Below are positions 22,351 through 55,053 of a stretch of 64,000 nt of DNA, one piece after another. Source of the DNA: Plantactinospora soyae (lineage in GTDB: Bacteria > Actinomycetota > Actinomycetes > Mycobacteriales > Micromonosporaceae). The notes below the pieces were generated by a model that was not told the origin of the DNA, made no database searches, and saw only the letters and a program-made list of their open reading frames with translations. The DNA lies in assembly GCF_014874095.1 (NCBI RefSeq), contig NZ_JADBEB010000001.1, forward strand, positions 7,006,001 through 7,070,000. Direction: 5' to 3'. Each line of letters begins with the position of its first letter. The stretch's first letter is position 1. The position numbers and the translations under genes were made by a program.

Positions 22351-22384
22351 GCTGGCCGGATTCCCGGTGGGGAACCCGGCCAGC
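22351..22384 (-). terminator. Terminator of repeat unit A
   Basis: GCTGGCCGG-a-TTCCC / GGGAA-c-CCGGCCAGC: the same hairpin as in the other units but with one internal mismatch and compensating changes in the upper stem. Confidence 0.82.
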
Positions 22385-22405
22385 GGTAGCGCCATGCTTC
22401 GTTGT

Positions 22406-23101
22406 TTAGCTGTTGTTCCAGGCGTTGGCGACGAGGTCAGCGGCCTGGTTCTCCCACTTGGCGTACGCGTCCGGGTACGCCGAGACCTGCACCTTCTGCG
22501 CCGCCACGGTCAACGGCAGATCATGCCAACCATCAACCTGCTTCAGACCCTTGAGGAACGCGATCGTCGAGTACTCCGGATCGGTGATCTGATCCGGCGA
22601 ACCCCAACCCGAGGACGGCCGCTGCTGGAACAGACCCAGCGAGTCATGGTCGTTACGGTCACCCAGGTGACCCAGGTTCTCCAACTTCGACTCCTGGAGG
22701 CTCGTGCCCACCGCGATCACGGCGGCACGCTCGTCCAGACCAGCCTTCTTCGTGGCCTTCACGATCGCCTTCACGTTCCCGGACTGCTCGCCCGAGAGCG
22801 GAATCGACTGCTGCTCACCCTGCACACCACGCGGAACCAGCCTGTCCCGCGACGGCTTAGCGTCCTTCTTACCCTTGTCCTTGTCGTTCTTGTCCTTGTC
22901 GCCCTTGTGGTCCTTGTCGGCCAGCACCGACTGCGACACCGACACCGGCCTGTTGTGCTCCGGGGCGGCCTGAGCCGCCACCGCGGGACCGGCGACCGCG
23001 CCACCGACAAACGCCAAACCAGCAAGACCCAACACACTCTTACGAACAATCGAAGTCTGCTCGACGGCCGGGAGCCATCGGCTGAACAGAGTCGTGTTCA
23101 C
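22406..23101 (-). CDS. Secreted lysozyme-like protein, repeat copy A
   Basis: 231 residues. N-terminus VNTTLFSRWLPAVEQ, a signal peptide with hydrophobic core LGLAGLAFVGGAVAG and likely cleavage after AAQA (residue 45). A Lys/Asp linker at 62-82 (KDHKGDKDKNDKDKGKK) leads to the domain with Glu137 in SLQESKL, then GLFQQRPSSGWGSPDQ and VQVSAYPDAYAKWENQAAD. The Glu-Ser and Gly-Leu-Phe-Gln motifs resemble lytic transglycosylases, so a wall-lytic role is likely but unproven. The GTG at 23101 has GGAAGG eight bases upstream; the diverged relative starts at the equivalent place. Coding sequence appears identical to copy C. Confidence 0.85.
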   Translation of the reverse strand: MNTTLFSRWLPAVEQTSIVRKSVLGLAGLAFVGGAVAGPAVAAQAAPEHNRPVSVSQSVLADKDHKGDKDKNDKDKGKKDAKPSRDRLVPRGVQGEQQSIPLSGEQSGNVKAIVKATKKAGLDERAAVIAVGTSLQESKLENLGHLGDRNDHDSLGLFQQRPSSGWGSPDQITDPEYSTIAFLKGLKQVDGWHDLPLTVAAQKVQVSAYPDAYAKWENQAADLVANAWNNS

Positions 23102-23410
23102 GATGGTTACCTTCCACTCGGGGATGAACACCCCACGGGGGAAATCCGGGGTGCCAGTGGTACGTGATTCCGTCCCGAGGCGAACACGCGCCTCCAGGGA
23201 CCAAGACTTGTCCGGGAAGTACCGGGGGGCTACTCAACCGAACACCATATGTAACGACCGGGGGCCCTGGATCATTCCCGGCCCGCCACCTGTCAGCCCA
23301 GCTCACAGACCGTGGTACTCGGTCGTACGGGCAATGTAACGACCGGCCCCCCACCAACATTCCGGGCCACAAACTTGATCATGAACCGAACCGGACACCC
23401 GGAACATTCG
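23102..23410 (-). promoter_or_regulatory. Leader and promoter region of repeat copy A
   Basis: About 300 bp with no gene. Two related elements, GGTCG-N14-CGACC (23321-23344) and GGTCG-N14-CGGTT (23236-23259), both begin GGTCGTTACAT. A hairpin GTCCC-tg-GAGGCG/CGCCTC-GGGAC and a CACCCC/GGGGTG pair lie nearer the gene. Layout is shared by all five units. Confidence 0.6.
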
Positions 23411-23486
23411 GCAAGAGAGTCCGCCCTTGTCGTGGCTCCTGGCGGCCGGCCGAACTCTCAGGGTGGCTTGCTGGAGTTCGAGGGGG

Positions 23487-23876
23487 TCAGATGTCCTCGC
23501 CGTCCGAGTTGTCGGCGTCAGCGTCGAACGGGTCCGTCCAGTAGCCGGTGTCATGGAACCGGTCAACCGCAGCCTGCCAGGTCGAATAGCGGGGATCGTC
23601 CATCGCCACGTCGTCACCCTCAGCGGTACGCGGTGGCGGCGGCTCGTTACCCGAAAGGAAGCCGCGAATGAAGTAGAGGGCCTGTTCCGAGCACAGCTCG
23701 ATCTCCCCGAGCGACACCCGGGTGTAAACGCCCCTCTCCGCACAGTAAGCGCGCATACGACCCCGGTGAGTATGCGGGTTGCCGACCAGCAGGTAGTGCC
23801 GACCGCACGGGTCACTGTCGTACCACACCGCCGGATCGACATCCGCCGGTAACTTCTGATCAACCGAGGAGGTCAC
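23487..23876 (-). CDS. Conserved hypothetical protein
   Basis: 129-residue acidic protein from GTG 23876 (MTSSVDQKLPADVDP). The central part (CGRHYLLVGNPHTHRGRMRA, then CAERGVYTRVSLGEIELC) looks globular and conserved, with three Cys residues; the C-terminus is Asp-rich (DPFDADADNSDGEDI). No signal peptide or membrane segment. The Shine-Dalgarno is weak. I do not recognise a family. It stands alone between repeat unit A and the AraC gene on the same strand. Confidence 0.6.
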   Translation of the reverse strand: MTSSVDQKLPADVDPAVWYDSDPCGRHYLLVGNPHTHRGRMRAYCAERGVYTRVSLGEIELCSEQALYFIRGFLSGNEPPPPRTAEGDDVAMDDPRYSTWQAAVDRFHDTGYWTDPFDADADNSDGEDI

Positions 23877-24010
23877 CGCACCACTATGGCGCCAGCAGCA
23901 GCGGATCCGGAGTGTTTGGGCCGGTGACGTGAGCCACGAGGCTCGACCAGCCGCTGGCGGTCGACGGGTGTCCGGCCTGAGCATTCGTACCGGGGCCGGC
24001 CCCGACGACT

Positions 24011-25024
24011 TCAGTGGCGCGTTTCCGAGCTGATCTCCGCGATCTCCGGCAACGTGATCCGGGTCTGTCGGATCATTCGATCGGTGTCCGTACGGAGACG
24101 CCACTCTGACGGGGTGCATCCGTACTGCTGTTTGAACGCGCGGGAGAACGAGGAGTGGTCGGGGTACCCGGACATCCGGGCGATCGCCGCGACCGACACC
24201 AACGCGTTGGCGGGATTGACCAACGCGCGCGCCGCCCGGCTGAGCCGTTCGGTTCGGATCCACTCCCCCAGGGTCACGTTCATCCGGGCGAGCACCGCGT
24301 ACAGGTATCGCTTCGAGATGCCGAAGTGGGCGGCGAGCTTGTCGGCGCTCAGTTCGGGGTCTCCCGCGTGGGTCCGCAGGTACAGCATGATCCTCATGCC
24401 CATCGTCTGGCTGAGCGGTTGTCGGCTGAGGAACTCGTCGCCGCCGGCGGTTGTCAGCAGCGCGCGGAGCAGGTCGACCGTCGGATGCGCGAGCGCCGCC
24501 GCCTGCGCCTCGGAGAGCTCGGGCAGCCCCGCCAGCTCGGTCAGGTACTTGTCGACCAGCGGCCCGAGTGGGCTGCGACCGATGTTGCGGACCATCACGT
24601 CGCGGAGGAAGAGATAGGGCATACCCAGCTCCTCCATGGTCACGGTGATTGACCGCGCCTGGGTCGGCTCGTCCGCTCGGAGCCTGAGTGCGTCCCGGCT
24701 CCAGTACGGCACCATGGACCCTGACCGCTGGCGATCCATCCGGCCGTTCTGCTCGATGGCGTACGGCCCGGAGGAGACGGTCAGGATCAGACGCGGCATG
24801 GGGTCTCGCCGCGCGACGTTCGCAGACCGGAATCCGTGGAAGTTGTCGAGGGCGGTCTGGGTCACGTTGATGCCGCCGAAGTAGCGGTCCATGTGCTGGA
24901 AGGCGACCCCACGGCCAGGGTCGGCCGGTCGCGCGCGGAACGGCACCGAGCAGGTGCGGGCCGCCTCGTCGAGGATCTCGACCCGGGACGACCGCACCCC
25001 GTCGGTCAGGTTGAAGTAGCGCAT
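24011..25024 (-). CDS. AraC-family transcriptional regulator
   Basis: 337 residues. The N-terminal two thirds resemble the AraC-binding-like cupin domain of actinobacterial regulators; the C-terminus has the double helix-turn-helix (LAAHFGISKRYLYAVL and VSVAAIARMSGYPDHSSFSRAFKQQYG, the second being the AraC signature). The ATG at 25024 has GGAGAG eight bases upstream. It lies 22 bp after a degenerate short-chain dehydrogenase gene on the same strand. The divergent hydrolase/MBL pair beyond it may be its target (inference). Confidence 0.9.
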   Translation of the reverse strand: MRYFNLTDGVRSSRVEILDEAARTCSVPFRARPADPGRGVAFQHMDRYFGGINVTQTALDNFHGFRSANVARRDPMPRLILTVSSGPYAIEQNGRMDRQRSGSMVPYWSRDALRLRADEPTQARSITVTMEELGMPYLFLRDVMVRNIGRSPLGPLVDKYLTELAGLPELSEAQAAALAHPTVDLLRALLTTAGGDEFLSRQPLSQTMGMRIMLYLRTHAGDPELSADKLAAHFGISKRYLYAVLARMNVTLGEWIRTERLSRAARALVNPANALVSVAAIARMSGYPDHSSFSRAFKQQYGCTPSEWRLRTDTDRMIRQTRITLPEIAEISSETRH

Positions 25025-25046
25025 CTCGTAACTCTCCGGTTGCCGC

Positions 25047-25730
25047 TCATGGCGAAACAAGCTCGGGGTACATGATCGGAATCGGCGCCGACAACCTTGC
25101 CTTGATCTCCTCGCTGTACGCGTCGACCGTGATCTCGTAGTCACGGGCGGCGATCCCGGCCAGTGTCCGGTCCACGATCGCGTCCAACCCGGGGTCGGCC
25201 TCGCACAGGCCGAGCACGAGCCCGGCGACGTGGACGCCAGCCGGGGCAAGCTCCACCCGCAGGGCATTGGTCGCCGACCAGAGGGCGGCCTGCGAGACGG
25301 CGTACGCACCGCTGAGATTGATCCACGCCTGCACCGAGTACACCATCAGGATCACGCTTCGCGGCGAACCGGCCAGCACCGGCGCGAAGGCACTGGCCAA
25401 CCGGATCGCGCCGACCACATTGGTGTCGAGGTGGGCCGCGACGGCCGCCAGGTCACCCCCGCCGACGGTGACGGGGGGCCATTCCGGGAGTCCGTCGTTG
25501 TTCAGCAGGATCGTGGCATCGGAGGCCTCGGCCCTGGCCCGCTCGATGGTGTCGATGTCACGCACGTCGAGTTCGACCGCGACCACCCGATCGCTCGACC
25601 AGTCGCGGGGCTGGCGTCCGCCCGCGTAGACCCGTGCGGCACCCTGGGCGAGGAACCGGTCGACGAAGAGCTCGCCGAGATCCGACGACGCGTCGGTGAC
25701 GAAGACGACCTCCGACTCGAAGCCAGGCAT
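25047..25730 (-). CDS. Degenerate short-chain dehydrogenase/reductase-like protein
   Basis: 227 residues with a Rossmann fold of the SDR type. The dinucleotide loop reads VTDASSDLGELF rather than TGxxxGxG, and the catalytic YxxxK is YAVSQ, so the active-site Lys is replaced by Gln. The LLNNDG segment corresponds to the usual NNAG. The loss of both key motifs suggests a non-catalytic or altered role. It is cotranscribed with the downstream AraC regulator gene. Confidence 0.82.
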   Translation of the reverse strand: MPGFESEVVFVTDASSDLGELFVDRFLAQGAARVYAGGRQPRDWSSDRVVAVELDVRDIDTIERARAEASDATILLNNDGLPEWPPVTVGGGDLAAVAAHLDTNVVGAIRLASAFAPVLAGSPRSVILMVYSVQAWINLSGAYAVSQAALWSATNALRVELAPAGVHVAGLVLGLCEADPGLDAIVDRTLAGIAARDYEITVDAYSEEIKARLSAPIPIMYPELVSP

Positions 25731-25860
25731 GGCCCTCCTCTCCGTTCTACGCGAAGGGTAGCGCCGTACCCGCTCGGGAGAGGCCCAGCACGATGTGCAT
25801 CCTGCTGTGCCACGCGTGCACCGCAGGTCGGCCTGACCAGGCCACCCGGCCGTTAGTTCA

Positions 25861-25872
25861 CTGTGTGCACAG
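25861..25872. promoter_or_regulatory. Candidate operator in the SDR/hydrolase divergent region
   Basis: CTGTG-TG-CACAG inverted repeat, with further TGCAC/GTGCA copies on both sides (25797-25892), between the divergent SDR-araC and hydrolase-MBL transcription units. A plausible AraC regulator site. Confidence 0.35.
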
Positions 25873-25927
25873 CAAGATGCACGACGGGTGAAGGCGCCAC
25901 GTCGGGCATGGCGCCTACGGTTCGGCC

Positions 25928-26746
25928 ATGACTCCCGACACCATCGTGCTGGTGCACGGCTTCTGGGTGACGCCTCGTAGCTGGGAACACTGGATCACGC
26001 ACTATGAGCAGAAGGGGTTCCGCGTTCTCGCGCCCGGATACCCCGGGTTCGAAGTCGAGGTCGAGGCCCTCAACGCCAACCCGGACATCATCACCGCGGT
26101 CACGGTCCCGGCCATCATCGACAAGGTCGAGAAGATCATTCAAGGTCTGGACCGGCAACCGATCATCATCGGGCACTCGGCCGGCGGCGCGTTCACGCAG
26201 ATCCTGCTCGACCACGGGTACGGCGCCGCCGGCGTAGCGCTCAACTCCGCACCCACCGAGGGCGTACGGGTGGTGCCGCTGTCGCAGGTGAAGTCGACGT
26301 TCTCGGTACTGAAGTCACCGGCCAACCGGCACAAGGCCGTCGGCCTCACGCTGGAGGAGTGGACGTACGCGTTCACCAACACCTTCACGCCCGAGGAATC
26401 CAAGGCGTTGTACGAGCGGTACCACATCCCCGCCAACGGCGGCATCCTCTGGGGCAGTGTGCTGGCCAACTTCCAACCCGGCCACCAGGACACCTGGGTC
26501 GACTACCACAACGACAAGCGCGCTCCCCTGCTGTTCGTCTCCGGCAGCGAGGACCACATCATGCCGCCCGCCATCCAGCAGTCCAACCACAAGCACTACA
26601 AGTCCGACACCGTCACCGAGATTCGCGAGTACCCCGGGTACGCCCACCTGCTCCCGGCGCAGACGGGCTGGGAGGTCATCGCGGACGAGGTACTCGACTG
26701 GGCGCTGCGCCACGCCCGGACCGGTCCCGTGCCGACCAGCGGATGA
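25928..26746 (+). CDS. Alpha/beta hydrolase
   Basis: 272-residue hydrolase of the alpha/beta fold. The oxyanion segment is VLVHGFWVTP, the nucleophile elbow GHSAGG, the acid probably the Asp in GSEDHIMPP, and the catalytic His in GYAHLLP. There is no signal peptide, so it is cytoplasmic. Substrate is unknown; an esterase or lactonase is plausible. Its stop overlaps the start of the MBL-fold gene (ATGA), so the two form an operon. Confidence 0.9.
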   Translation: MTPDTIVLVHGFWVTPRSWEHWITHYEQKGFRVLAPGYPGFEVEVEALNANPDIITAVTVPAIIDKVEKIIQGLDRQPIIIGHSAGGAFTQILLDHGYGAAGVALNSAPTEGVRVVPLSQVKSTFSVLKSPANRHKAVGLTLEEWTYAFTNTFTPEESKALYERYHIPANGGILWGSVLANFQPGHQDTWVDYHNDKRAPLLFVSGSEDHIMPPAIQQSNHKHYKSDTVTEIREYPGYAHLLPAQTGWEVIADEVLDWALRHARTGPVPTSG

Positions 26747-27534
26747 CGGAGGTCCGGGTCACCCACATCGGCGGGCCGACAACGCTGGTCGAGTTCGCCG
26801 GGTGGCGGGTGCTCACCGACCCGACCTTCGACCCGCCCGGCCGGACCTACCAGTTCGGATGGGGCACATCGTCGCGGAAGCTCACCGGCCCGTCCATCGC
26901 CCCGGCAGACCTGGGACCGATCGACGCGGTGCTGCTCACCCACGACCATCACGGCGACAATCTCGACGACGCCGGCCGGGTGCTGCTGTCTGGAGTCGGC
27001 ACCGTGCTCACCACGGTCCCCGGCGCGAGACGACTGGGCGGCAACGCCACCGGTCTCGCGCCGTGGGCCACCACCCGTCTCGTCCTCGACGGCCGCCCCA
27101 CGATCGAAGTCACCGCGACACCCTGCCGACACGGCCCACCGCTGAGCCGTCCGATCGTCGGTGACGTCATCGGCTTCGCGCTGAGCTGGAGCGGCCAGCG
27201 ACACGGGCTGTTCTGGGTCTCCGGAGACACCGTGTTGTACGGCGGCGTCCGGCAGGTCGCCCAGCGGCTCGACATCGGCACCGCGCTCGTACACCTCGGT
27301 GGCGTCCGGTTTCCGCTGACCGGGCCGCTGCGCTACAGCATGACCGGTCGCGAGGCCGTCGAACTCTGCCAGGCGATCCAGGCGCACACGGTCATCCCCG
27401 TGCACTACGAGGGCTGGCAACACTTCCAGCAACCCCACGCGAAGCTGGCGCGGGAACTGGACGCCGCGCCGGACGACGTCCGCCGTAGCGTCCGCTGGCT
27501 GCCGGTCGGCGTGGCGAGCGACATCACCGTCTGA
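26743..27534 (+). CDS. MBL-fold metal-dependent hydrolase
   Basis: 263 residues of the metallo-beta-lactamase fold, closest in look to the UlaG/RomA-like group. The metal motif is THDHHGDNLD (HxHxDH type), followed by the later His in CRHGPP, an Asp in VSGDTVLYGG and a final His in PVHYEGW. It starts within the stop codon of the alpha/beta hydrolase gene. The substrate is unknown; pairing with an esterase-like enzyme suggests consecutive steps on an ester or lactone compound. Confidence 0.88.
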   Translation: MTEVRVTHIGGPTTLVEFAGWRVLTDPTFDPPGRTYQFGWGTSSRKLTGPSIAPADLGPIDAVLLTHDHHGDNLDDAGRVLLSGVGTVLTTVPGARRLGGNATGLAPWATTRLVLDGRPTIEVTATPCRHGPPLSRPIVGDVIGFALSWSGQRHGLFWVSGDTVLYGGVRQVAQRLDIGTALVHLGGVRFPLTGPLRYSMTGREAVELCQAIQAHTVIPVHYEGWQHFQQPHAKLARELDAAPDDVRRSVRWLPVGVASDITV

Positions 27535-27594
27535 CCTGGTCCCGCTGCGACGGCACGGCACCGTTGCGGTTGCACCGAGAGACGCGGTACGCGG

Positions 27595-28143
27595 TCAACC
27601 GGCCCAGGACCGGATGTACTCGTCGACGAGTTTCATCCGTACCTCGAGCGTGCCGGCGGGTACGTCAACCAGTTCAAAACCATGTTCCCGGTACGCCTGC
27701 TCGTGGAAGCGTTCGAACCTGACCGACTGTGCGAGGGTGATCCGGCGCGCCGCTGTCGGCGTGATGAATCCGAGCAGGTGGACGAAGAAGACGCGTGGTT
27801 GATAGATGCCCTCCCCGACGACGCGGTCGATCTCCCTGGCCAGGGTCGGCGTCACCGGCCGCCCGGCGTAGTGGGCGAGCGCCAACGTGCAGATCGGCGA
27901 CCGGTCGAATACCTGGACCGTGGTCGCGGGCGGCGCCGGCTGCTCCTGGCGGTCACGCTGGAGCAGCGTGACCGCGTCGATGAAGCCCGCATCGCGCCAC
28001 GGCTCGTCGCGACCCAGCGCCTGTTCGCGGGCGATGACGTCGGTCGCCGCCTCGTCGACCACGGCGTATCCGCGATCGCGAAGCGCTGCCACGATCGTCG
28101 TTTTTCCGGCGCCCGGCGCGCCGGTCAAGATGTATCGCCGCAC
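27595..28143 (-). CDS. P-loop AAA-type nucleotide-binding protein
   Basis: 182 residues from GTG 28143, preceded by GAGAGGAG. Walker A is TGAPGAGKTTIV at the extreme N-terminus. DEAATDVIAREQ and FDRSPICTLALAHYAGR resemble the AAA_28 group of small P-loop proteins. The C-terminus (RFERFHEQAYREHGFELVDVP) is typical of that group. The biochemical role is unknown; nucleotide or small-molecule kinase is possible. The gene is convergent with the MBL-fold gene. Confidence 0.8.
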   Translation of the reverse strand: MRRYILTGAPGAGKTTIVAALRDRGYAVVDEAATDVIAREQALGRDEPWRDAGFIDAVTLLQRDRQEQPAPPATTVQVFDRSPICTLALAHYAGRPVTPTLAREIDRVVGEGIYQPRVFFVHLLGFITPTAARRITLAQSVRFERFHEQAYREHGFELVDVPAGTLEVRMKLVDEYIRSWAG

Positions 28144-28446: not shown

Positions 28447-28451
28447 GACGC

Positions 28452-28489
28452 CGCTGGCCGGGTCCCCGTGGGTGGGGACCCGGCCAGCG
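28452..28489 (-). terminator. Terminator of repeat unit B
   Basis: CGCTGGCCGGGTCCCC, loop GTGGGT, and the exact reverse complement: 16-bp stem, identical in units B, C, D and E. Confidence 0.9.
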
Positions 28490-28509
28490 GTGATGCCATG
28501 TTTTGTTGT

Positions 28510-29205
28510 TTAGCTGTTGTTCCAGGCGTTGGCGACGAGGTCAGCGGCCTGGTTCTCCCACTTGGCGTACGCGTCCGGGTACGCCGAGACCTGCACCTTC
28601 TGCGCCGCCACGGTCAGCGGCAGATCATGCCAACCATCAACCTGCTTCAGACCCTTGAGGAACGCGATCGTCGAGTACTCCGGATCGGTGATCTGATCCG
28701 GCGAACCCCAACCCGAAGACGGCCGCTGCTGGAACAGACCCAGCGAGTCATGGTCGTTACGGTCACCCAGGTGACCCAGGTTCTCCAACTTCGACTCCTG
28801 CAACGACGTTCCGACCGCGATCACGGCGGCACGCTCGTCCAGACCAGCCTTCTTCGTAGCCTTCACGATCGCCTTCACGTTCCCGGACTGCTCGCCCGAG
28901 AGCGGAATCGACTGCTGCTCACCCTGCACACCACGCGGAACCAGCCTGTCCCGCGACGGCTTAGCGTCCTTCTTACCCTTGTCCTTGTCGTTCTTGTCCT
29001 TGTCGCCCTTGTGGTCCTTGTCGGCCAGCACCGACTGCGACACCGACACCGGCCTGTTGTGCTCCGGGGCGGCCTGAGCCGCCACCGCGGGACCGGCGAC
29101 CGCGCCACCGACAAACGCCAAACCAGCAAGACCCAACACACTCTTACGAACAATCGAAGTCTGCTCGACGGCCGGGAGCCATCGGCTGAACAGAGTCGTG
29201 TTCAC
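28510..29205 (-). CDS. Secreted lysozyme-like protein, repeat copy B
   Basis: 231 residues, same amino-acid sequence as copies A and C including the linker, but with silent differences clustered around the SLQESKL codons, where it matches copies D and E instead. This mosaic pattern indicates recombination between copies. Start GTG at 29205 with the same GGAAGG. Signal peptide, Lys/Asp linker and lysozyme-like domain are as in copy A. Confidence 0.85.
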   Translation of the reverse strand: MNTTLFSRWLPAVEQTSIVRKSVLGLAGLAFVGGAVAGPAVAAQAAPEHNRPVSVSQSVLADKDHKGDKDKNDKDKGKKDAKPSRDRLVPRGVQGEQQSIPLSGEQSGNVKAIVKATKKAGLDERAAVIAVGTSLQESKLENLGHLGDRNDHDSLGLFQQRPSSGWGSPDQITDPEYSTIAFLKGLKQVDGWHDLPLTVAAQKVQVSAYPDAYAKWENQAADLVANAWNNS

Positions 29206-29468
29206 GATGGTTACCTTCCACTCGGGGATGAACACCCCACGGGGGAAATCCGGGGTGCCAGTGAAACCAAACTGTCCCGAGACGAACAAACGCCCGCCTC
29301 CAGGGACCAAGACTTGTCCGGGAAGTACCGGGGGGCTACTCAACCGAACACCATATGTAACGACCGGGGGCCCAGGATCATTCCCGGCCCGCCACCTGTC
29401 AGCCCAGCTCACAGACCGTGGTACTCGGTCGTACGGGTAATGTAACGACCGGCCCCCCACCAACATTC
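29206..29468 (-). promoter_or_regulatory. Leader and promoter region of repeat copy B
   Basis: Gene-proximal leader differs from A/C/D (GTGAAACCAAAC block), yet the hairpin GTCCC-tg-GAGGCG / CGTCTC-GGGAC is kept through a G-U pair. Both GGTCGTTACAT elements are intact, 85 bp apart. The remaining 200 bp to the response-regulator gene show nothing recognisable. Confidence 0.6.
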
Positions 29469-29671
29469 CCACCAGCCGAGTCGATCAAGTCTGCGTTCCG
29501 GACACCTGGGCGAATCTCGCCCAGTCACCCCGGAACCTCCTCCTCGGCGCCCACAGCGTAGGCCACCTCGCAGTCGCGACTCCGGCGTCGATGCGTGCCG
29601 CCAGGCACATTGCGTACGGCGTCCTAGGATACTGGGTACGTCGCTCAACCCGCGTGATGGACGAGGGATGC

Positions 29672-30346
29672 CTACAGTGCCGGGCGACGATTCGTCGGGC
29701 TGACGAGGCCGGACTCGTAGGCGAGTACGACGAGCTGGGCGCGATCCCGGGCGTGGAGCTTGGTCATTGCCCGGCTGACGTGTGTCTTCGCGGTCGCCTG
29801 GCTGATCACCATCTGCGCGGCGATCTCGTCGTTGGACAGGCCACGGGCGGCCAGCGCCACGACCTCGCGTTCCCGGTTGGTCAGGATCTCCAGGGCCTGC
29901 GAAAGATCGCCGTGCGGCGGACGGGAGACGTACTCGTCGATCAGCCGGCGGGTGATGGTGGGCGAGAGTAGGGCGTCGCCCCGGGCGGCCACCCGTACAC
30001 CGTGTAGCAGGTCCTCCGGCTCGGTGTCCTTGACGAGGAAGCCACCGGCCCCAGCCCGCAGCGCGGTGTAGACGTACTCGTCGAGGCCGTAGTTGGTCAG
30101 CATCACCACGTGCACCGCGGTCAGGCGCGGATCGGCGGCGATCTGCCGGGTCGCCTGGATGCCGTCGAGAACCGGCATCTGGATGTCGATCAGCGCCACG
30201 TCGGGCAGGTGCGCCACGGCGAGCGCCACGGCCTGGCTACCGTCGGCCGCTTCGGCCACCACCTCGATGTCGTCCTCGGCGTTCAGCAGCGCGCGGAACC
30301 CGGCGCGGATCAGGGCCTGATCGTCGGCGAGCAGCACCCGAATCAC
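29672..30346 (-). CDS. NarL/FixJ-family response regulator
   Basis: 224 residues: receiver domain with acidic pocket LLADDQ, phospho-acceptor Asp in ALIDIQMPVLDG and the switch Lys in FLVKDTEPEDL, then a LuxR-type helix-turn-helix (LTNREREVVALAARGLSNDEIA...). The GTG start overlaps the kinase stop by four bases, so the pair is cotranscribed with the kinase upstream. Likely targets are the divergent DUF1772-MMPL genes (inference from position). Confidence 0.93.
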   Translation of the reverse strand: MIRVLLADDQALIRAGFRALLNAEDDIEVVAEAADGSQAVALAVAHLPDVALIDIQMPVLDGIQATRQIAADPRLTAVHVVMLTNYGLDEYVYTALRAGAGGFLVKDTEPEDLLHGVRVAARGDALLSPTITRRLIDEYVSRPPHGDLSQALEILTNREREVVALAARGLSNDEIAAQMVISQATAKTHVSRAMTKLHARDRAQLVVLAYESGLVSPTNRRPAL

Positions 30347-46107: not shown

Positions 46108-46119
46108 ACAAACGATTGT
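46108..46119 (-). promoter_or_regulatory. Candidate GntR operator / leaderless promoter at the atzF start
   Basis: ACAAACGATTGT has ACAA/TTGT arms and touches the atzF start codon. On the minus strand GACAAT seven bases before ATG could be the -10 box of a leaderless transcript. Binding by the adjacent FCD regulator would block it. Confidence 0.4.
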
Positions 46120-46251
46120 CGACCGTTCTGTTTCGACGGATCGTCAGTCAGGTAACGACGATGTGTCACACCTGGCGGGCGGCGGGAACGGTGGACGAAG
46201 TCACGCCGACGTGGGGCCGGCGCGGAGCGGGGCCGGACCAGGTTCATTCGA

Positions 46252-47001
46252 TCAGCGGCTCAGATAGGACCGGCCGCCGTGTGCGGCCAACTCGGCGAGC
46301 ACCGTCTGCGGGTCGCCGTCCGCCACCGCCGCGAAGAGTCGCTCGTGTCGGTGTACGCCGTCCGTTGCCGTCGCCGTCTCCGCCTCCCGATGCAGGTTGA
46401 GCGCCATGTAGAGCTGAAGCTTCAACAGAATCGAGCCGTAGACGGCGGAGAGCTGCCGGTTGCCCGCGAGGGCCACCAGTTCCAGGTGGAAACCTCGGTG
46501 GGCCTCCGCCACGGCCAGCCGATCGCCGGACCGGGTAGCCTCCCGCATCTGGTCGAGCGCCGCCCGGAGTCCGACCAGGTCGCTTTCCGAGCCCACCGGC
46601 AGGGCTGCCTCGACGGCGTACCGCTCCAGCACGTCGCGCACCGCGTACAGCTCGAGCATGTCCCGCTCGGAGAGGGTGGCGACCCGAACTCCGCGCCGTG
46701 GCACGTGTTCGACCAGGCCCTGCTGGGCGAGCAGCCGAAGCGCCTCCCGGAGCGGAGCCCGGCTGATGCCGAGTCGCCGGGTCAGTTGCTCCTCGACCAG
46801 CCGCTCCCCCGGATCCGTCTTGCCGCCGAGGATCTCGCGGCTGAGCCGGAGCACTGCCAACTCGACGAGGCTGGCACTCTCCAACTCACCGTCCGTCGAC
46901 GGTTCCGCGCTGTTCCGGTACGACCCCCACCCGCGCTGCGCCGGCAGGCCACGAGCGGCAGTGTCGCTGATTCTGACAGTCCGCTCGGTTGGCTCGGTCA
47001 C
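46252..47001 (-). CDS. GntR-family (FCD) transcriptional regulator
   Basis: 249 residues from GTG 47001. Winged helix with LVEEQLTRRLGISRAPLREALRLLAQQGLVEHVPRRG, then an all-helical FCD ligand domain with metal-site-like Asp/His residues (LELYAVRDVLERYAVE, AHRGFHLELVALAGN, HRHERLFAAVADGD). It lies directly upstream of atzF on the same strand and probably senses an intermediate of the biuret/allophanate pathway. Confidence 0.9.
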   Translation of the reverse strand: MTEPTERTVRISDTAARGLPAQRGWGSYRNSAEPSTDGELESASLVELAVLRLSREILGGKTDPGERLVEEQLTRRLGISRAPLREALRLLAQQGLVEHVPRRGVRVATLSERDMLELYAVRDVLERYAVEAALPVGSESDLVGLRAALDQMREATRSGDRLAVAEAHRGFHLELVALAGNRQLSAVYGSILLKLQLYMALNLHREAETATATDGVHRHERLFAAVADGDPQTVLAELAAHGGRSYLSR

Positions 47002-47058
47002 GCCGAAGAGTCTGCCATCCGCCCCGGCTGGCACGGTTGCGGGCGGCGCACAGGACGC

Positions 47059-47096
47059 CGCTGGCCGGGTCCCCGTGGGTGGGGACCCGGCCAGCG
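47059..47096 (-). terminator. Terminator of repeat unit D
   Basis: Perfect 16-bp stem with GTGGGT loop, identical to unit C; the following 28 bp up to the gene stop are also the same as in C. Confidence 0.9.
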
Positions 47097-47120
47097 GTGC
47101 TATCCAAGCGTCTTCGTTGT

Positions 47121-47849
47121 TTAGCTGTTGTTCCAGGCGTTGGCGACGAGGTCGGCGGCCTGGTTCTCCCACTTGGCGTACGCGTCCGGGTACGCCGAGA
47201 CCTGCACCTTCTGCGCCGCCACGGTCAACGGCAGATCATGCCAACCATCAACCTGCTTCAGACCCTTGAGGAACGCGATCGTCGAGTACTCCGGATCGGT
47301 GATCTGATCCGGCGAACCCCAACCCGAAGACGGCCGCTGCTGGAACAGGCCCAGCGAGTCGTGGTCGTTACGGTCACCCAGGTGACCCAGGTTCTCCAAC
47401 TTCGACTCCTGTAACGACGTTCCGACCGCGATCACGGCGGCACGCTCGTCCAGACCAGCCTTCTTCGTAGCCTTCACGATCGCCTTCACGTTCCCGGACT
47501 GCTCACCCGAGAGCGGAATCGACGACTGCTCACCCTGCACACCACGCGGAACCAGCCTGTCCCGCGACGGCTTACCCTTGTTCTTATCCTTGTCGTTGTT
47601 CTTATCCTTGTCGTTGTTCTTATCCTTGTCGTTGTTCTTGTCCTTGTCGCCCTTGTGGTCCTTGTCGGCCAGCACCGACTGCGACACCGACACCGGCCTG
47701 TTGTGCTCCGGAGCGGCCTGAGCCGCCACCGCGGGACCGGCGACCGCGCCACCGACAAACGCCAAACCAGCAAGACCCAACACACTCTTACGAACAATCG
47801 AAGTCTGCTCGACGGCCGGGAGCCATCGGCTGAACAGAGTCGTGTTCAC
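47121..47849 (-). CDS. Secreted lysozyme-like protein, repeat copy D (expanded linker)
   Basis: 242 residues. Signal peptide and catalytic-like domain match copy A except for QSSIPLS in place of QQSIPLS. The linker differs: three tandem NNDKDK units replace the A-type sequence and it ends NKGKPSRD. The units are exact 18-nt DNA repeats, so the length change is probably slippage or unequal crossing-over. Start GTG 47849. Confidence 0.85.
   Translation of the reverse strand: MNTTLFSRWLPAVEQTSIVRKSVLGLAGLAFVGGAVAGPAVAAQAAPEHNRPVSVSQSVLADKDHKGDKDKNNDKDKNNDKDKNNDKDKNKGKPSRDRLVPRGVQGEQSSIPLSGEQSGNVKAIVKATKKAGLDERAAVIAVGTSLQESKLENLGHLGDRNDHDSLGLFQQRPSSGWGSPDQITDPEYSTIAFLKGLKQVDGWHDLPLTVAAQKVQVSAYPDAYAKWENQAADLVANAWNNS
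47578..47660. repeat. 18-nt tandem repeat encoding the linker of copy D
   Basis: TTCTTATCCTTGTCGTTG recurs three times in a row (plus partial units), adding six residues per unit to the Lys/Asp/Asn linker. Confidence 0.88.
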
Positions 47850-48160
47850 GATGGTTACCTTCCACTCGGGGATGAACACCCCACGGGGGAAATCCGGGGT
47901 GCCAGTGGTACGTGATTCCGTCCCGAGGCGAACACGCGCCTCCAGGGACCAAGACTTGTCCGGGAAGTACCGGGGGGCTACTCAACCGAACACCATATGT
48001 AACGACCGGGGGCCCAGGATCATTCCCGGCCCACCATCCAACAGCCCAGCCCACAGACCGTGGTACTCGGTCGTACGGGTAATGTAACGACCGGCCCCCC
48101 ACCAACATTCCAAGCCACAAACTTGATCATGAATCGAACCGGACACCGGGGACAATCGGA
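47850..48160 (-). promoter_or_regulatory. Leader and promoter region of repeat copy D
   Basis: Same layout as in C. The stretch between the two GGTCGTTACAT elements has its own variants (CCATCCAACAGCCCAGCCC). The further 165 bp to the next gene hold nothing recognisable. Confidence 0.6.
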
Positions 48161-48325
48161 CCCGCGCGACCCGGTCGGCCCTACAGCGCGGCAGAACCCG
48201 TGCCCCGATACTCGTCGTCGCCGTCCCCGGCCCGATGACCCACGTGCGGATGGCGGGAACTCCCGCCAAGCCAGCCGGGCACGCTGGTCGTCCGAGCCGC
48301 GGAGTGGAGCGGTAACGTCAGTCGC

Positions 48326-48895
48326 GTGGACGATGCCGAGGAGGGTACGCGGATCGGCGCCGCGCTGGACGGCTGGTTGGATCGGCTGACCTTCACCGAC
48401 CAGACGAGCGACGAGGTCACCGCGCTGCTGATCGACTCGGTGGCGGCCTGGGCGATGGCCCAGGGTTGGCGGGTGTACCGCCGAGCCGCCAGCGTCATGC
48501 CCCTCCCGCCGCCCTACACCCACAAGCACTCCATAGTGGACATCGGCTGCGCCCGGACTGCCGGCGCGCCCGTCGTGATCGAGGTCGACCATTCCGACCG
48601 GCAACGCTCCATCGACAAGCTCCTGTTGGAGGCGGCGGCCGGCCGGATCCCCGTCTGGCTCCGCTGGAGCGATCGGCGGTTCGAACCGCCGCCGGCACCG
48701 GTCACCATGGTGACCTTCAGGGTCACCTCCCGGTCCGGCCCGGATGGCACCGGAAGGCGGTACTCGAAAGCTTCCGCCACCGATCGGCCCGCACCGTCAC
48801 ACACCCTTGGACAGACCGCCGAGCCGGGTGAACAGGTCGACCTGTTCACCACCCCGACGCCGCCGGGCCGGCCCGACCGGGGTACCGAGCCCTGA
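48326..48895 (+). CDS. Hypothetical protein with nuclease-fold-like core
   Basis: 189 residues from GTG 48326. The centre reads HSIVDIGCARTAGAPVVIEVDH, then RSIDKLLLEAAAGRIPVWLRW. A spaced D...E-x-D with a downstream Lys is reminiscent of PD-(D/E)XK folds, but this is weak evidence. The C-terminal third is Pro/Thr-rich and probably disordered. No signal peptide. Family not recognised with confidence. Confidence 0.6.
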   Translation: MDDAEEGTRIGAALDGWLDRLTFTDQTSDEVTALLIDSVAAWAMAQGWRVYRRAASVMPLPPPYTHKHSIVDIGCARTAGAPVVIEVDHSDRQRSIDKLLLEAAAGRIPVWLRWSDRRFEPPPAPVTMVTFRVTSRSGPDGTGRRYSKASATDRPAPSHTLGQTAEPGEQVDLFTTPTPPGRPDRGTEP

Positions 48896-48995
48896 CCTCG
48901 CCTACGGGTACGCGGTCCCGGCCATCGGCCTCCCGCAAAGCCTTCCACCGCCGAGCGCCGGGACCCAGACCTCGCCCAGCCAACTTGCGAACGCT

Positions 48996-49018
48996 GTACG
49001 CATAGCGCATAGTCGTAC
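48996..49018. promoter_or_regulatory. Candidate TetR operator
   Basis: GTACG-N13-CGTAC inverted repeat enclosing a CATAGcgCATAG direct repeat, about 50 bp upstream of the TetR gene. AT-rich against its surroundings. Confidence 0.45.
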
Positions 49019-49070
49019 GCAATGTCGAACGTCGTCCGCTAGGCTGGGGGACAAGAAATGAGGAGGCCGG

Positions 49071-49832
49071 ATGCCCGCCGACCAGAAGCCGGTGCCATCG
49101 GTGTGGACCCGTCAGCGCCGACAGCGAGAGCAGCCGGCGCTGAGCCAGGAACGGATCGTCTCCGAGGCCGTCCACCTGCTCGACGTCGACGGCATCGATG
49201 CCCTGAGCATGCGCAGCCTCGGCAACCGGCTGGGCGCCGGGGCCACCTCGCTCTACCGGCACGTCGCCACGAAGGACGAGCTGATCGAGCTGGTCGTGGA
49301 CGAGGTCTACGGCGAACTGGAAGTACCGGACGTGACCGATCCGGCGCACTGGCGCGAAGTCGCCGCCCGCAGCGCCCATGACGTGCGGTCGATGACCCTG
49401 CGGCACCCCTGGGTCGCCGCCGTACTCGGCCAGGTCGGGCTCGCCTCCCTCGGGCCGAACCTGAGCCGGGTGTCCGAAGGCATGCTCGCCCTGTTCGAGG
49501 TGGCCGGCTTCGACCTCGAGGAAGCCGACCAGGCCATGAACACCCTCATCGCGTACGTCATCGGAATGACGACGAGCGAAGCCGCGTACCTGTCCATGCT
49601 CGCGCGCAGCGGCCAGACCGAGCAGGAGTGGGCAGAGAGCCTACGACCCGCCGCCGAGCAGGCCGTCAAGGACCACCCACGGCTGAGCGAGGGCTACGCC
49701 GCGCATCGCGACAGAGACCCCCGGGTCATCCGCGACGCCAACTTCGACTACGGACTCCAGCGGGTTCTGGACGGCCTGGAGAGCCGGCTCGACCACCTCG
49801 GCGGTTCGCCGGGTAGCGCTCTGCCGACGTAG
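49071..49832 (+). CDS. TetR-family regulator (TetR_C-type)
   Basis: 253 residues. The N-terminal DNA-binding part (IVSEAVHLLDVDGIDALSMRSLGNRLGAGATSLYRHVATKDELIELVVDEVYG) is the TetR/TetR_C class common in antibiotic-resistance regulators. ATG 49071 has GAGGAGG at ideal spacing. It has no obvious divergent target; the candidate operator in front suggests autoregulation. Confidence 0.9.
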   Translation: MPADQKPVPSVWTRQRRQREQPALSQERIVSEAVHLLDVDGIDALSMRSLGNRLGAGATSLYRHVATKDELIELVVDEVYGELEVPDVTDPAHWREVAARSAHDVRSMTLRHPWVAAVLGQVGLASLGPNLSRVSEGMLALFEVAGFDLEEADQAMNTLIAYVIGMTTSEAAYLSMLARSGQTEQEWAESLRPAAEQAVKDHPRLSEGYAAHRDRDPRVIRDANFDYGLQRVLDGLESRLDHLGGSPGSALPT

Positions 49833-49919
49833 ACCCCTGGTTCGGCGGCGACCAGGGCGAGGAAGATGTCGTGGTCGCCGGCCGGCCCGGCGAGGTCCCC
49901 GGGTTCCTTGAGAGCCGGG

Positions 49920-50228
49920 TTAGCCGCGCTTCATCAGACGTCCGACGGCGGCCATCATCTCGGAGGCCATCTCGTCGGCCCGTCCCTCGGCGGCACCCTC
50001 GTGCATGCAGTGCCGGGCGTGCCCGTCGAGCAGGCCGAGCGCGACCTTGTCCAGCGCCGCCTGGATCGCGGAGATCTGCGTCAGTACGTCGATGCAGTAG
50101 CGGTCGTCCTCGACCATCCGCTCGATACCCCGGACCTGCCCCTCGACGCGTCGTAGCCGCGCGAGCAACTGATCCTTGCTGGCGGTGTAGCCACGCGTCG
50201 GCGTCGGAGTGTCCGCTGGGGTTGTCAT
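49920..50228 (-). CDS. csoR: Copper-sensing repressor CsoR
   Basis: 102-residue all-helical repressor. The copper ligands Cys-x-His-x-Cys appear as Cys in DDRYCIDVL and His/Cys in GHARHCMHEG. The N-terminal TASKDQLLARLRRVEGQVRG is the family landmark. It is divergent from copZ-copA, with several CsoR-like boxes between them; copper(I) binding should release the DNA. Start ATG 50228. Confidence 0.93.
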   Translation of the reverse strand: MTTPADTPTPTRGYTASKDQLLARLRRVEGQVRGIERMVEDDRYCIDVLTQISAIQAALDKVALGLLDGHARHCMHEGAAEGRADEMASEMMAAVGRLMKRG

Positions 50229-50243
50229 GTCCCCAAGCATAGC

Positions 50244-50260
50244 TAACCCCCCAGGGGTAT
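50244..50260. promoter_or_regulatory. CsoR box 1
   Basis: TAACCCCCCAGGGGTAT, a G/C-tract pseudo-palindrome of CsoR type, 15 bp upstream of csoR. Confidence 0.7.
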
Positions 50261-50278
50261 GCTACGGTCCTTCGCATG

Positions 50279-50297
50279 GATACCCCCACCGGGTACC
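50279..50297. promoter_or_regulatory. Possible CsoR box 2
   Basis: GATACCCCCACCGGGTACC, a weaker match between the two clear boxes. Confidence 0.4.
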
Positions 50298-50376
50298 CGT
50301 ATATGGCGACCGTCGTACCGGCAGTCGGCGCACCCCTCCGGCGCGCGCCGCAGTCCGGCACACTCACGCCCGGCGG

Positions 50377-50393
50377 ATACCCCCCTAGGGTAT
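50377..50393. promoter_or_regulatory. CsoR box 3 upstream of copZ
   Basis: ATACCCCCCTAGGGTAT closely follows the CsoR palindrome consensus and lies 30 bp upstream of the copZ Shine-Dalgarno. Confidence 0.78.
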
Positions 50394-50424
50394 ATGCTCG
50401 GGTGTGATGGAAGGGAGAGAGCAG

Positions 50425-50634
50425 ATGATCACGGAGAAGTACCAGGTCAAGGGCATGACGTGCAGCCACTGTGTCGACGCCGTCAGCACCGAGGTCCGCG
50501 CGATTCCCGGCGTCAGCGAGGTGACCGTCGACCTGGCCTCCGGTCAGGTCACCGTCAGCAGCGCTGAGCCGCTCGACGTGCAGGTCCTGCGCAACGCGGT
50601 GGACGAGGCCGGCTACGAGGTTGTCACTTCCTGA
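50425..50634 (+). CDS. copZ: Copper chaperone CopZ
   Basis: 69-residue heavy-metal-associated domain with the copper motif GMTCSHC at residues 10-16 and the usual beta-alpha-beta pattern ending VDEAGYEVVTS. ATG 50425 is preferred because GGGAGA lies six bases upstream; two earlier in-frame starts exist. It hands copper(I) to the CopA ATPase encoded two genes downstream. Confidence 0.93.
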   Translation: MITEKYQVKGMTCSHCVDAVSTEVRAIPGVSEVTVDLASGQVTVSSAEPLDVQVLRNAVDEAGYEVVTS

Positions 50635-50668
50635 CCACGCTCGATCTCACGGAAATGCAGGTACCACG

Positions 50669-51664
50669 ATGAACACCTCGGCGAAGCTGGGCGTCTTCGC
50701 GCTCGCCCTCGCGACAGTGTTCGGTGCGGCGTACGGGACCGGCCAGTTGACCGGTCCCGTACGTACCGCCACCGATTCCGACCCCTCCCACTCCGCCGGC
50801 CACGACGAGATCTCCGATCCGGCTGGCCAACCCCGACTGCCGGGCGGACTGCTCGTCTCCGACCGGGGCTACACCCTCACCCTCGTACCGACCGATGCCA
50901 CAGAGTTCGCGTTCCAGGTGATCGGGCCCGACAAACGACCGGTGACGGGGTACGACGTCGAGCACGACAAGCGGATGCATCTGATCGTCGCCCGGCGGGA
51001 CCTGTCGGGGTTCCGGCACGTACATCCCGTGATGGATCCGGACGGCACCTGGCGGGTCGCCGCCCCGCTCACCGACCCCGGCAGTTGGCGCGCGTTCGCG
51101 GACTTCAAGCCCATCGGCGGGGACGCGCTGACGCTCGGGATCGACGTCTCCGTTCCCGGGGACTACCAGCCCCGACCGCTGCCCGCACCCGCACCGACCA
51201 CGAAGGTCGACGGGTACGACGTCCGCCTCGACGGCAGCCTCCGCCCCGGGCAGAGCAACCGGTTGACCCTGACCGTGAGCCGAGACGGTAGCGCCGTCAC
51301 CGACCTTCAGCCCTACCTCGGGGCGTACGGCCACCTCGTCGCGCTCCGCGACGGCGACCTGGCGTACCTGCACGTGCACCCCGACGGTGCACCCGGCGAC
51401 GGAAAGACACCGGCGGGTCCGGGGATAACCTTCTTCGCCGAGGTTCCCTCGGCCGGCGCCTACCGGCTGTACCTCGACTTCCAGCACGCCGGCACGGTCC
51501 GCACCGCCGAGTTCACCCTGACCGCCACCGACGAGTCCGCCGGTTCGCCGAGCGCTACCCCCGGCTCGCCGAGCGGTGCGCCCGACCGGCCGAGCGGCAC
51601 ACCCGACCATCCCGATCCGACGGCCGGGAACGGGACTGACGAGTCCGGCCACGGACACAACTGA
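50669..51664 (+). CDS. Exported copper-associated protein
   Basis: 331 residues. An N-terminal hydrophobic segment ([19 protein letters not shown]) serves as signal or anchor. Two beta-rich parts follow with His-rich motifs: [28 protein letters not shown] and a C-terminal GHGHN. The tail has Pro/Ser/Gly repeats ([17 protein letters not shown]). Similar proteins commonly lie between copZ and copA in actinobacteria; extracellular copper binding is likely but unproven. Confidence 0.75.
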
Positions 51665-51677
51665 GCAGGAGGCAGTG

Positions 51678-53969
<2,292 letters not shown>

Positions 53970-53992
53970 CAGCGGCACGGCGTGCAAGACGC

Positions 53993-54030
53993 CGCTGGCC
54001 GGGTCCCCGTGGGTGGGGACCCGGCCAGCG
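53993..54030 (-). terminator. Terminator of repeat unit E
   Basis: Perfect 16-bp stem with GTGGGT loop; between convergent genes, so it may also end the copper operon transcript. Confidence 0.9.
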
Positions 54031-54053
54031 GTGGTGTGACATGTCTTCGTTGT

Positions 54054-54737
54054 TTAGCTGTTGTTCCAGGCGTTGGCGACGAGGTCAGCGGCCTGGTTCT
54101 CCCACTTGGCGTACGCGTCCGGGTACGCCGAGACCTGCACCTTCTGCGCCGCCACGGTCAACGGCAGATCATGCCAACCATCAACCTGCTTCAGACCCTT
54201 GAGGAACGCGATCGTCGAGTACTCCGGATCGGTGATCTGATCCGGCGAACCCCAACCCGAAGACGGCCGCTGCTGGAACAGGCCCAGCGAGTCGTGGTCG
54301 TTACGGTCACCGAGGTGACCCAGGTTCTCCAACTTCGACTCCTGCAACGAGGTTCCGACCGCGATCACGGCGGCACGCTCGTCCAGACCAGCCTTCTTCG
54401 TAGCCTTCACGATCGCCTTCACGTTCCCGGACTGCTCGCCCGAGAGCGGGATCGACGACTGCTCACCCTGCACACCACGCGGAACCAGCCTGTCCCGCGA
54501 CGGCTTACCCTTGTTCTTGTCCTTGTCGGACTTGTGGTCCTTGTGGTCCTTGTCGGCCAGCACCGACTGCGACACCGACACCGGCTTGTTGTGCTCCGGG
54601 GCGGCCTGAGCCGCCACCGCGGGACCGGCGACCGCGCCACCGACAAACGCCAAACCAGCAAGACCCAACACACTCTTACGAACAATCGAAGTCTGCTCGA
54701 CGGCCGGGAGCCATCGGCTGAACAAAGTCGTGTTCAC
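54054..54737 (-). CDS. Secreted lysozyme-like protein, repeat copy E (short linker)
   Basis: 227 residues. Differs from copy A by HNKP for HNRP after the signal peptide, a shorter linker (KDHKDHKSDKDKNKGK) and QSSIPLS. The lysozyme-like domain is unchanged, so selection or conversion holds it constant while the linker varies. Start GTG 54737. Confidence 0.85.
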   Translation of the reverse strand: MNTTLFSRWLPAVEQTSIVRKSVLGLAGLAFVGGAVAGPAVAAQAAPEHNKPVSVSQSVLADKDHKDHKSDKDKNKGKPSRDRLVPRGVQGEQSSIPLSGEQSGNVKAIVKATKKAGLDERAAVIAVGTSLQESKLENLGHLGDRNDHDSLGLFQQRPSSGWGSPDQITDPEYSTIAFLKGLKQVDGWHDLPLTVAAQKVQVSAYPDAYAKWENQAADLVANAWNNS

Positions 54738-55053
54738 GATGGTTACCTTCCACTCGGGGATGAACACCCCACGGGGGAAAACCGGGGTGCCAGTGAAACG
54801 TGATCCTGTCCCGAAGCGAACACGCGCCCGCCTCCAGGGACCAAGACTTTGCCCGGCGAATAACTGGGGGGCTACTCAACCGAACACCATATGTAACGAC
54901 CGGGGGCCCAGGATCATTCCCGGCCCGCCACCCAACAGCCCAGCTCACAGGCTGCGGTACTCGGTCGTACGGGTAATGTAACGACCGACCCCCGGCCAAC
55001 ATTCCGGGCCACAGACTTGATCATGAAACGAATCGGACGCCGGGGACGATCGG
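54738..55053 (-). promoter_or_regulatory. Leader and promoter region of repeat copy E
   Basis: Hairpin arm here is CGCTTC instead of CGCCTC, which still pairs with GAGGCG through G-U. Paired elements conserved; the distal one ends in CGACCCCC variants. Confidence 0.6.

What the first reader, a model, noticed from the sequence alone, without database searches (positions are those of the whole stretch)
22351..55053. Five near-identical transcription units for a secreted lysozyme-like protein, dispersed through 33 kb in one orientation
Units A-E (22351, 28447, 34521, 47054, 53988) each carry the same terminator hairpin, a gene for a secreted protein with Glu-Ser and Gly-Leu-Phe-Gln motifs, and a leader with two elements exactly 85 bp apart. 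They sit between unrelated gene modules with no transposase, terminal inverted repeats or target duplications in view. Identity extends through non-coding flanks, so this is not ordinary paralogy. As same-orientation direct repeats they could also drive loss, gain or shuffling of the modules between them.
Basis: partly seen in the sequence, partly recalled or inferred. Interest (0 to 1): 0.85.

Follow-up and report, generated by a model that had tools for sequence, protein, structure and literature searches.

The report
Self-homogenising repeated lysozyme genes, chromosome-wide
Bacteria of one family keep several nearly identical copies of a secreted lysozyme-type gene, with its promoters and terminator, at old sites around the chromosome; the copies seem to keep overwriting one another and lie where gene order has changed more often than nearby.

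Summary
The five units are real: about 1.05 kb, two GGAAT-N18-GTTACAT promoters exactly 85 bp apart, leader, GTG gene, terminator hairpin. The genome is one 9.7 Mb contig, probably Plantactinospora, with a sixth copy 1.8 Mb away. The protein is a predicted secreted GH184-type muramidase: profile match to solved GH184 structures E=2e-26, same fold, catalytic Glu invariant. Near-identity is not recent spread. Several sites are shared between species, yet copies resemble others in the same genome rather than the copy at the same site elsewhere. In 12 complete Micromonospora chromosomes (83 copies, 4-9 each) paralogues beat orthologues in 182 of 184 two-genome, two-site quartets. The alike stretch covers promoters, gene and a short 3' piece, then ends: concerted evolution, best explained by ectopic gene conversion. 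New sites also arise: one copy has unit-free orthologous places in 11 of 11 other genomes. Known processes, in a gene family and form I did not find described.

The parts
22346..23411 (-). Unit A (gene 22406-23101; promoters 23249-23278 and 23334-23363)
   Evidence: a unit beside the same left neighbour in G001-G004
28447..29469 (-). Unit B (gene 28510-29205; promoters 29355-29384 and 29440-29469; weaker similarity to about 29515)
34521..35594 (-). Unit C (gene 34588-35283; promoters 35431-35460 and 35516-35545; terminator hairpin 34525-34564)
47054..48161 (-). Unit D (gene 47121-47849; promoters 47997-48026 and 48082-48111)
   Evidence: a unit or unit piece beside the same left neighbour in G002, G004 and G006
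53988..55054 (-). Unit E (gene 54054-54737; promoters 54891-54920 and 54976-55005); G004 has no unit between the same two genes
19888..20688 (-). Diverged paralogue beside site A (start codon by my own gene caller)
   Evidence: its counterpart lies beside a unit in Micromonospora
23487..28143 (.). Module between A and B (AraC regulator, SDR, hydrolase, beta-lactamase fold, AAA); no homologue at the threshold used in the fetched stretches of the six relatives
29672..34474 (.). Module between B and C (two-component system, MMPL transporter); beside a unit piece in G003, and in G006 on a contig whose end matches 33 bases of a unit
35650..47001 (.). Stretch between C and D (TetR, M20 peptidase, 5'-nucleotidase, isochorismatases, amidase, GntR); partly conserved in relatives
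48326..53969 (.). Module between D and E (TetR, metal repressor, HMA protein, P-type ATPase); mostly conserved in G004

Best explanation
Each unit is a complete transcription unit (two ECF-type promoters, leader, gene, terminator) for a secreted GH184-type muramidase. The family is old in Micromonosporaceae and several of its sites are shared between species. Within a genome the copies overwrite one another by homologous recombination without crossover (ectopic gene conversion), which keeps promoters, gene and 3' end alike. Rarer crossovers between units delete, insert, exchange or invert the DNA between them; in the window, same-orientation units bound gene modules that differ between species. 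Occasionally a unit appears at a new intergenic site by an unknown route. Selection for high dosage of one enzyme from one regulon is the likely reason for keeping many copies. Shown by sequence: anatomy, homology to GH184, shared sites, within-genome homogenisation, changed neighbours at units. Inferred: the recombination mechanism, the role of crossovers, secretion, the sigma factor, dosage as the selective reason, and enzyme activity.
For: Plantactinospora: 19 full copies from 5 genomes. Coding identity among G004 copies A, D, x and Far 98.9-99.7%, among five G001 copies 94.2-98.2%, among window A-E 96.2-100%, between genomes 76.5-88.3% apart from one pair (93.5%), although A, D and Far are shared sites; in the whole-unit tree A-E separate from the rest with 100% support. 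Micromonospora, 12 complete genomes, 83 copies: same genome, different site 93.4% (265 pairs); same site, different genome 84.6% (158); neither 83.7% (2966); nearest copy in own genome for 81 of 83; best own paralogue beats best orthologue for 62 of 62; 182 of 184 quartets. Third codon positions show it too (88.5% against 74.7%), so protein constraint is not the cause. In sampled pairs the alike stretch covers roughly 300 bp upstream to about 60 bp past the gene; same-site pairs become alike again further downstream, though not upstream. Incompatible informative sites show that A-E are mosaics. Rearrangement: a nearest neighbour shared on one side is shared across the unit in 98 of 163 and 98 of 155 cases, against 134 of 157 and 117 of 155 for the next gene out; break rate 0.34 across units, 0.18 in flanks, higher across units in 32 of 42 genome pairs and lower in 10 (42 of 66 pairs had enough cases). 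Flanks occur in several combinations. Muramidase.
Against: The gene-order comparison uses non-independent genome pairs, and some flank steps break about as often as the unit does (third to fourth downstream gene shared in 68 of 108, second to third upstream 86 of 117). Four site labels keep both flanks in 8-9 of 12 genomes, so crossovers are not frequent everywhere. Homogenisation is incomplete: the Far copies of G000 and G002 are 93.5% alike as orthologues but only 87-89% and 84-85% like the other copies of their own genomes. In the leader tree G003 A falls among the G001 copies with weak support. Two of 184 quartets go the other way, and in the first Micromonospora set 9 of 73 copies are closest to another genome. 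In several species inserted DNA has a unit on one side only, which a simple crossover between two units does not produce. How units reach new sites is unexplained.
Confidence: 0.85

Rival explanations
1. The unit is a non-autonomous mobile element (gene cassette or MITE-like) that spreads by transposition, helped by an enzyme elsewhere; near-identity reflects recent bursts in each genome.
For: New sites exist: G105 673,557 has collinear unit-free flanks in 11 of 11 other genomes (6 of the 11 intergenic stretches fetched and compared); unit E has an empty counterpart in G004; 11 of 83 Micromonospora copies share neither flank with another genome examined.
Against: Many sites are shared across species, so repeated bursts would have to hit the same places. 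No terminal inverted repeats in unit C, no recognisable target duplication, and the 5' end of the repeat varies: G004 D, x and Far share about 200 bp more than A.
Confidence: 0.1
2. Repeated lineage-specific duplication and loss (birth and death) with no gene conversion.
For: Copy number varies from 4 to 9 in 12 genomes.
Against: The quartet test uses only sites present in both genomes and still gives 182 of 184, so independent re-duplication at the same sites would be needed. Mosaic sites in A-E need recombination.
Confidence: 0.04
3. Units merely sit in variable regions (insertion hot spots), and the gene-order breaks are unrelated to recombination between units. This can hold together with gene conversion.
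For: New DNA lies on one side of a unit without a second unit in G000 Far, G004 D and others; breaks also occur away from units.
Against: Conserved flanks change partners at units: KJ029 L101 carries the upstream flank of rubida L052 and the downstream flank of rubida L044; globispora L067 and HK10 L061 carry the exchanged combinations of rubida L043 and L044 (the L061 upstream match is partial); G062 carries an exchanged combination against most other genomes.
Confidence: 0.2

Closest known systems
Concerted evolution of prokaryotic genes (Wang and Chen 2018, PMC6053082; passages read) such as tuf and amoCAB; rRNA operons (recalled, and listed)
   Same: Paralogues within a genome are more alike than orthologues at shared sites, including silent positions.
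   Different: Here 4-9 copies of a predicted secreted cell-wall hydrolase in Actinobacteria; the words lysozyme and Micromonospora do not occur in that paper's main text (its supplements were not seen). The homogenised stretch includes promoters and a 3' piece.
GH184 muramidases (PMC10394673; passages read)
   Same: Sequence, fold, catalytic Glu and the Asp and Ser positions.
   Different: The enzymes studied there are fungal; the paper says bacterial members exist, lack the wall-binding domain and are not discussed. Here a signal-like N-terminus and a charged linker precede the domain.
Rearrangements between dispersed repeats (rRNA operons, IS elements, rhs genes; recalled)
   Same: Homologous repeats act as joints for deletion, exchange and inversion.
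   Different: The repeat is a protein gene unit without a transposase.
Integron gene cassettes (recalled)
   Same: Hairpin-bearing gene units between unrelated genes.
   Different: No integrase named by Pfam nearby, not a tandem array, own promoters.

Membership tests
GH184 muramidase | Sequence homology to the GH184 catalytic domain | tested here: met
   Profile of 58 sequences against PDB sequences: 8b2e E 2.3e-26, 8b2h 6.1e-26; single sequence 3.5e-11 and 5.1e-12
GH184 muramidase | Catalytic Glu (Glu41 of KsGH184) with Asp66 and Ser69 | tested here: met
   E137, D151 and S154 align with them (read by counting along, positions) and are invariant in 58 of 58
GH184 muramidase | Fold | tested here: met
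   112 of 231 residues at pLDDT 90 or more, N-terminal third below 50; best PDB matches 8b2e TM 0.82 and 8b2h 0.79 by target length
GH184 muramidase | Cleavage of peptidoglycan | not testable with these tools
   needs an enzyme assay
Concerted evolution | Paralogues closer than orthologues at shared sites | tested here: met
   182 of 184 quartets; Plantactinospora matrix and trees, with the Far copies of G000 and G002 as exception
Concerted evolution | Also at silent sites | tested here: met
   third positions 88.5% within, 74.7% orthologues
Concerted evolution | Mosaic copies | tested here: met
   incompatible two-to-three site patterns among A-E
Transposable element (IS, MITE) | Terminal inverted repeats | tested here: not met
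   no inverted pair joins the ends of unit C
Transposable element (IS, MITE) | Target-site duplication | tested here: inconclusive
   none seen at two empty-site comparisons, but the intergenic DNA has diverged
Transposable element (IS, MITE) | Transposase in or beside the unit | tested here: not met
   none named by Pfam; 6 of 30 neighbouring proteins had no family
Integron cassette array | Integrase with tandem cassettes | tested here: not met
   no integrase named among scanned genes; units 5-12 kb apart
Repeat-mediated chromosome rearrangement | Excess of gene-order breaks and exchanged flanks at the repeat | tested here: met
   pairs are not independent and the control is the flanks of the same loci
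Repeat-mediated chromosome rearrangement | Dependence on RecA | not testable with these tools
   needs mutants

The most novel reading that the evidence does not exclude
Micromonosporaceae maintain a protein-coding counterpart of rRNA operons: a chromosome-wide set of near-identical muramidase transcription units, held alike by continual gene conversion for dosage of a single stress- or development-controlled enzyme, which also seeds new intergenic sites beside other genes' ends and serves as a main set of recombination joints of these chromosomes.
Probability: 0.25. Interest if true: 0.8.

Novelty: new variant of a known kind. Interest (0 to 1): 0.6.

Why it matters
Long-lasting concerted evolution of protein genes is reported as rare in prokaryotes (26 genes in PMC6053082, passages read). 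This family offers 4-9 copies per genome in the 12 complete Micromonospora genomes examined. Of 121 genomes sampled from the genus, 113 have a match better than 1e-100; the other 8, all drafts, have only matches in the range of the diverged paralogue. With shared sites as controls, rates, tract lengths and limits of ectopic gene conversion in Actinobacteria could be measured from existing genomes. It would also account for assembly breaks in draft genomes, and it links a cell-wall enzyme of unknown role in these bacteria to chromosome structure.

Tried and rejected
Pfam and NCBIfam gave no family for the window's unit proteins; Pfam SLT_3 appears weakly in 30 of 58 aligned sequences. The GH184 placement came from PDB sequences and the fold. 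Rfam gave nothing for the window at gathering scores or for the leader of unit C up to E 5; for one Micromonospora leader only a chance-level match.

RNA-mediated copying was considered because the alike stretch ends near promoter and terminator; rejected because the -35 elements and some upstream DNA are inside it. Replication-strand bias was tested as an explanation of orientation: 52 of 83 copies are on the leading strand against 548 of 924 genes called in the same stretches (unit genes included), so no clear bias (termini assumed opposite dnaA).

Weak points. The first Micromonospora set took only the 80 loci most like the query and dropped matches under 58% identity; 64 of 73 copies with a sister copy had their nearest neighbour in the own genome, 9 did not. 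The set of 12 single-contig genomes, chosen by me, replaced it. One search scored only about three matches per genome. In one search nine diverged paralogues (52-61%) and one short G066 match (L190, 89%) were put aside before counting. In one search the composite label u0d0 was left out of the same-site average and the quartets, but not of the 62-of-62 comparison. One search used samples: 150 of 265 same-genome, 120 of 158 same-site and 120 of 2966 other pairs. In one search, 42 of 66 genome pairs had at least four cases of both kinds. Flank families are single-linkage groups. Gene calls are from my own simple caller.

Literature: the listings (titles and abstract starts; capped lists) showed no description of this family's concerted evolution; the library lacks most subscription papers. 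Only PMC10394673 and PMC6053082 were opened, passages only.

Full report
What was checked. The five units exist as described. The window is position 7,006,001-7,070,000 of a single-contig 9.7 Mb genome with six unit copies: the five here and one at 8,853,160, 84% identical. The nearest named records are Plantactinospora, and six further genomes of the same genus are held.

Anatomy. From the gene's 5' side: a short conserved stretch, two GGAAT-N18-GTTACAT elements exactly 85 bp apart in all six copies (12 of 14 genome matches), a leader of about 150 bases, a GTG gene of 227-242 codons, and a terminator hairpin. The elements resemble ECF sigma promoters of the SigR kind; that resemblance is recalled, not tested. 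In Micromonospora 64 of 83 copies have one to three such elements under a looser pattern, and 19 have none within 520 bp.

Protein. An N-terminus like a signal peptide (by eye) and a Lys/Asp-rich linker, both low-confidence in the model, precede a confident helical domain. The profile matches the two solved GH184 muramidase catalytic domains, as do the single sequence and the fold. The Glu shown by mutation to be essential in the Kionochaeta enzyme (passages of PMC10394673) aligns with E137, invariant in 58 of 58 aligned sequences.

Old sites, young similarity. In Plantactinospora, a unit lies beside the same downstream neighbours at site A in G000-G004 (in G005 and G006 the contig ends there), beside the same downstream neighbour at site D in G000, G002, G004 and G006, and at the distant site in G000, G001, G002, G004 and, by neighbours, G003 and G006, where contigs end in units. 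Yet copies group mostly by genome: G004 copies at four places, some megabases apart, are 98.9-99.7% identical in the gene, while the A copies of G000 and G004 are 83.6% identical. Genes beside site A are 82-92% identical between G000 and the others, much like the units (for G002 the unit, 85.5%, is somewhat below its flanks, 90-92%), so the units do not diverge very fast between species; they are kept alike within them. The exception is G000 Far and G002 Far, orthologues at 93.5% that differ more from the other copies of their own genomes.

Twelve complete Micromonospora chromosomes carry 83 copies, 4-9 each. Copies at the same site in different genomes are hardly more alike (84.6%, 158 pairs) than copies at different sites in different genomes (83.7%, 2966 pairs), while copies in one genome average 93.4% (265 pairs). 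Of two-genome, two-site quartets, 182 of 184 favour the genome. Third positions agree. The alike stretch covers about 300 bp upstream through to about 60 bp past the gene, which is roughly the transcription unit. Together with mosaic site patterns in the window's own copies this is concerted evolution, and ectopic gene conversion is its best explanation.

Rearrangement. In Plantactinospora the right-hand (upstream) neighbours of unit A differ in all five genomes in which they can be read, at the homology threshold used, while the left-hand neighbour is the same. G000 has neighbour-unit-neighbour at D where G004 has 11 kb of other genes and where two G002 contigs suggest unit-module-unit; the join of those contigs is not proven. 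E is absent between the same two genes in G004. In Micromonospora the break rate across units is 0.34 against 0.18 in flanks, higher in 32 of 42 genome pairs and lower in 10; in the first, biased set a neighbour was shared across the unit in 49 of 93 cases against 91 of 100 and 73 of 95 one gene out. Upstream and downstream flanks occur in several combinations, including exchanged ones seen in DNA: KJ029 L101 matches the upstream flank of rubida L052 and the downstream flank of rubida L044. For the G103 unit at 2,261,277, one of the 11 other genomes (G178) matches both flanks, at two distant places, and G062, G066, G091, G097 and G171 match one flank strongly (long listing). Inversion between oppositely oriented units would give exchanged flanks; that step is inferred. 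Close pairs of units are in the same orientation (16 of 16 under 13 kb), as in the window and in a cluster of another genus, G026 (six units 75-84% alike and one diverged copy within 30 kb). Deletion, duplication or circle integration would preserve this; inversion would not.

The home locus. The window region corresponds to a Micromonospora locus with two units about 8-11 kb apart, to the G026 cluster and, in part, to a G007 locus. Homologues recur of window genes 38580 (5'-nucleotidase), 55100 (FAD protein), 56363 and 57029 in Micromonospora and G026, of 21027, 21398, 17867 and 15128 in Micromonospora, and of 17867, 15128 and 38580 in G007. In Micromonospora it lies at 0.47-0.54 of the chromosome from dnaA, and in G000 at 0.52, close to the presumed terminus.

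New sites. The G105 copy at 673,557 has collinear flanks without a unit in 11 of 11 other genomes, 4 to about 1,580 bases apart; in G091 the flanks are almost next to each other (six of the 11 intergenic stretches compared). The terminator side of this copy begins within about 15 bases of the neighbour's stop codon. No target duplication can be read.

Draft genomes G002, G003 and G006 have 15 contig ends inside or within about 70 bp of unit pieces (5, 4 and 6), as expected of true near-identical repeats.

Verdict. The kinds of process are known; the combination, the gene and the extent were not found in the searches named in Tried and rejected.

Noticed in passing
window 35284-35430 (leader of unit C) and the leaders of the Micromonospora units (loci L180-L248): Possible structured leader RNA. 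In Micromonospora a hairpin-like pattern AGCGCC...GGYGCT (63 of 83 copies within 520 bp) and a C-run followed by GGAG or GGAC near the start (67 of 83); in Plantactinospora a stem beside the ribosome-binding site seems, by eye, to change on both sides between species. No shuffled control was made; no convincing Rfam match.
   Followed up: partly
window 17867-58426: This locus recurs in four genera (G000, Micromonospora, G026, in part G007) as a place of units and lies near the presumed replication terminus in G000 and Micromonospora.
   Followed up: partly
L130, L131, L128 (G004 units x, Far, D): These three copies share about 200 bp more upstream DNA than copy A, so the repeat's 5' end is not fixed.
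   Followed up: partly
window 47578-47649 and 35054-35104: The Lys/Asp-rich linker is coded by short tandem repeats that differ in number between copies.
   Followed up: no
L214 7400-7951 (upstream of the G105 copy at 673,557): The inserted stretch is about 0.5 kb longer than the unit itself; the origin of the extra DNA was not traced.
   Followed up: no
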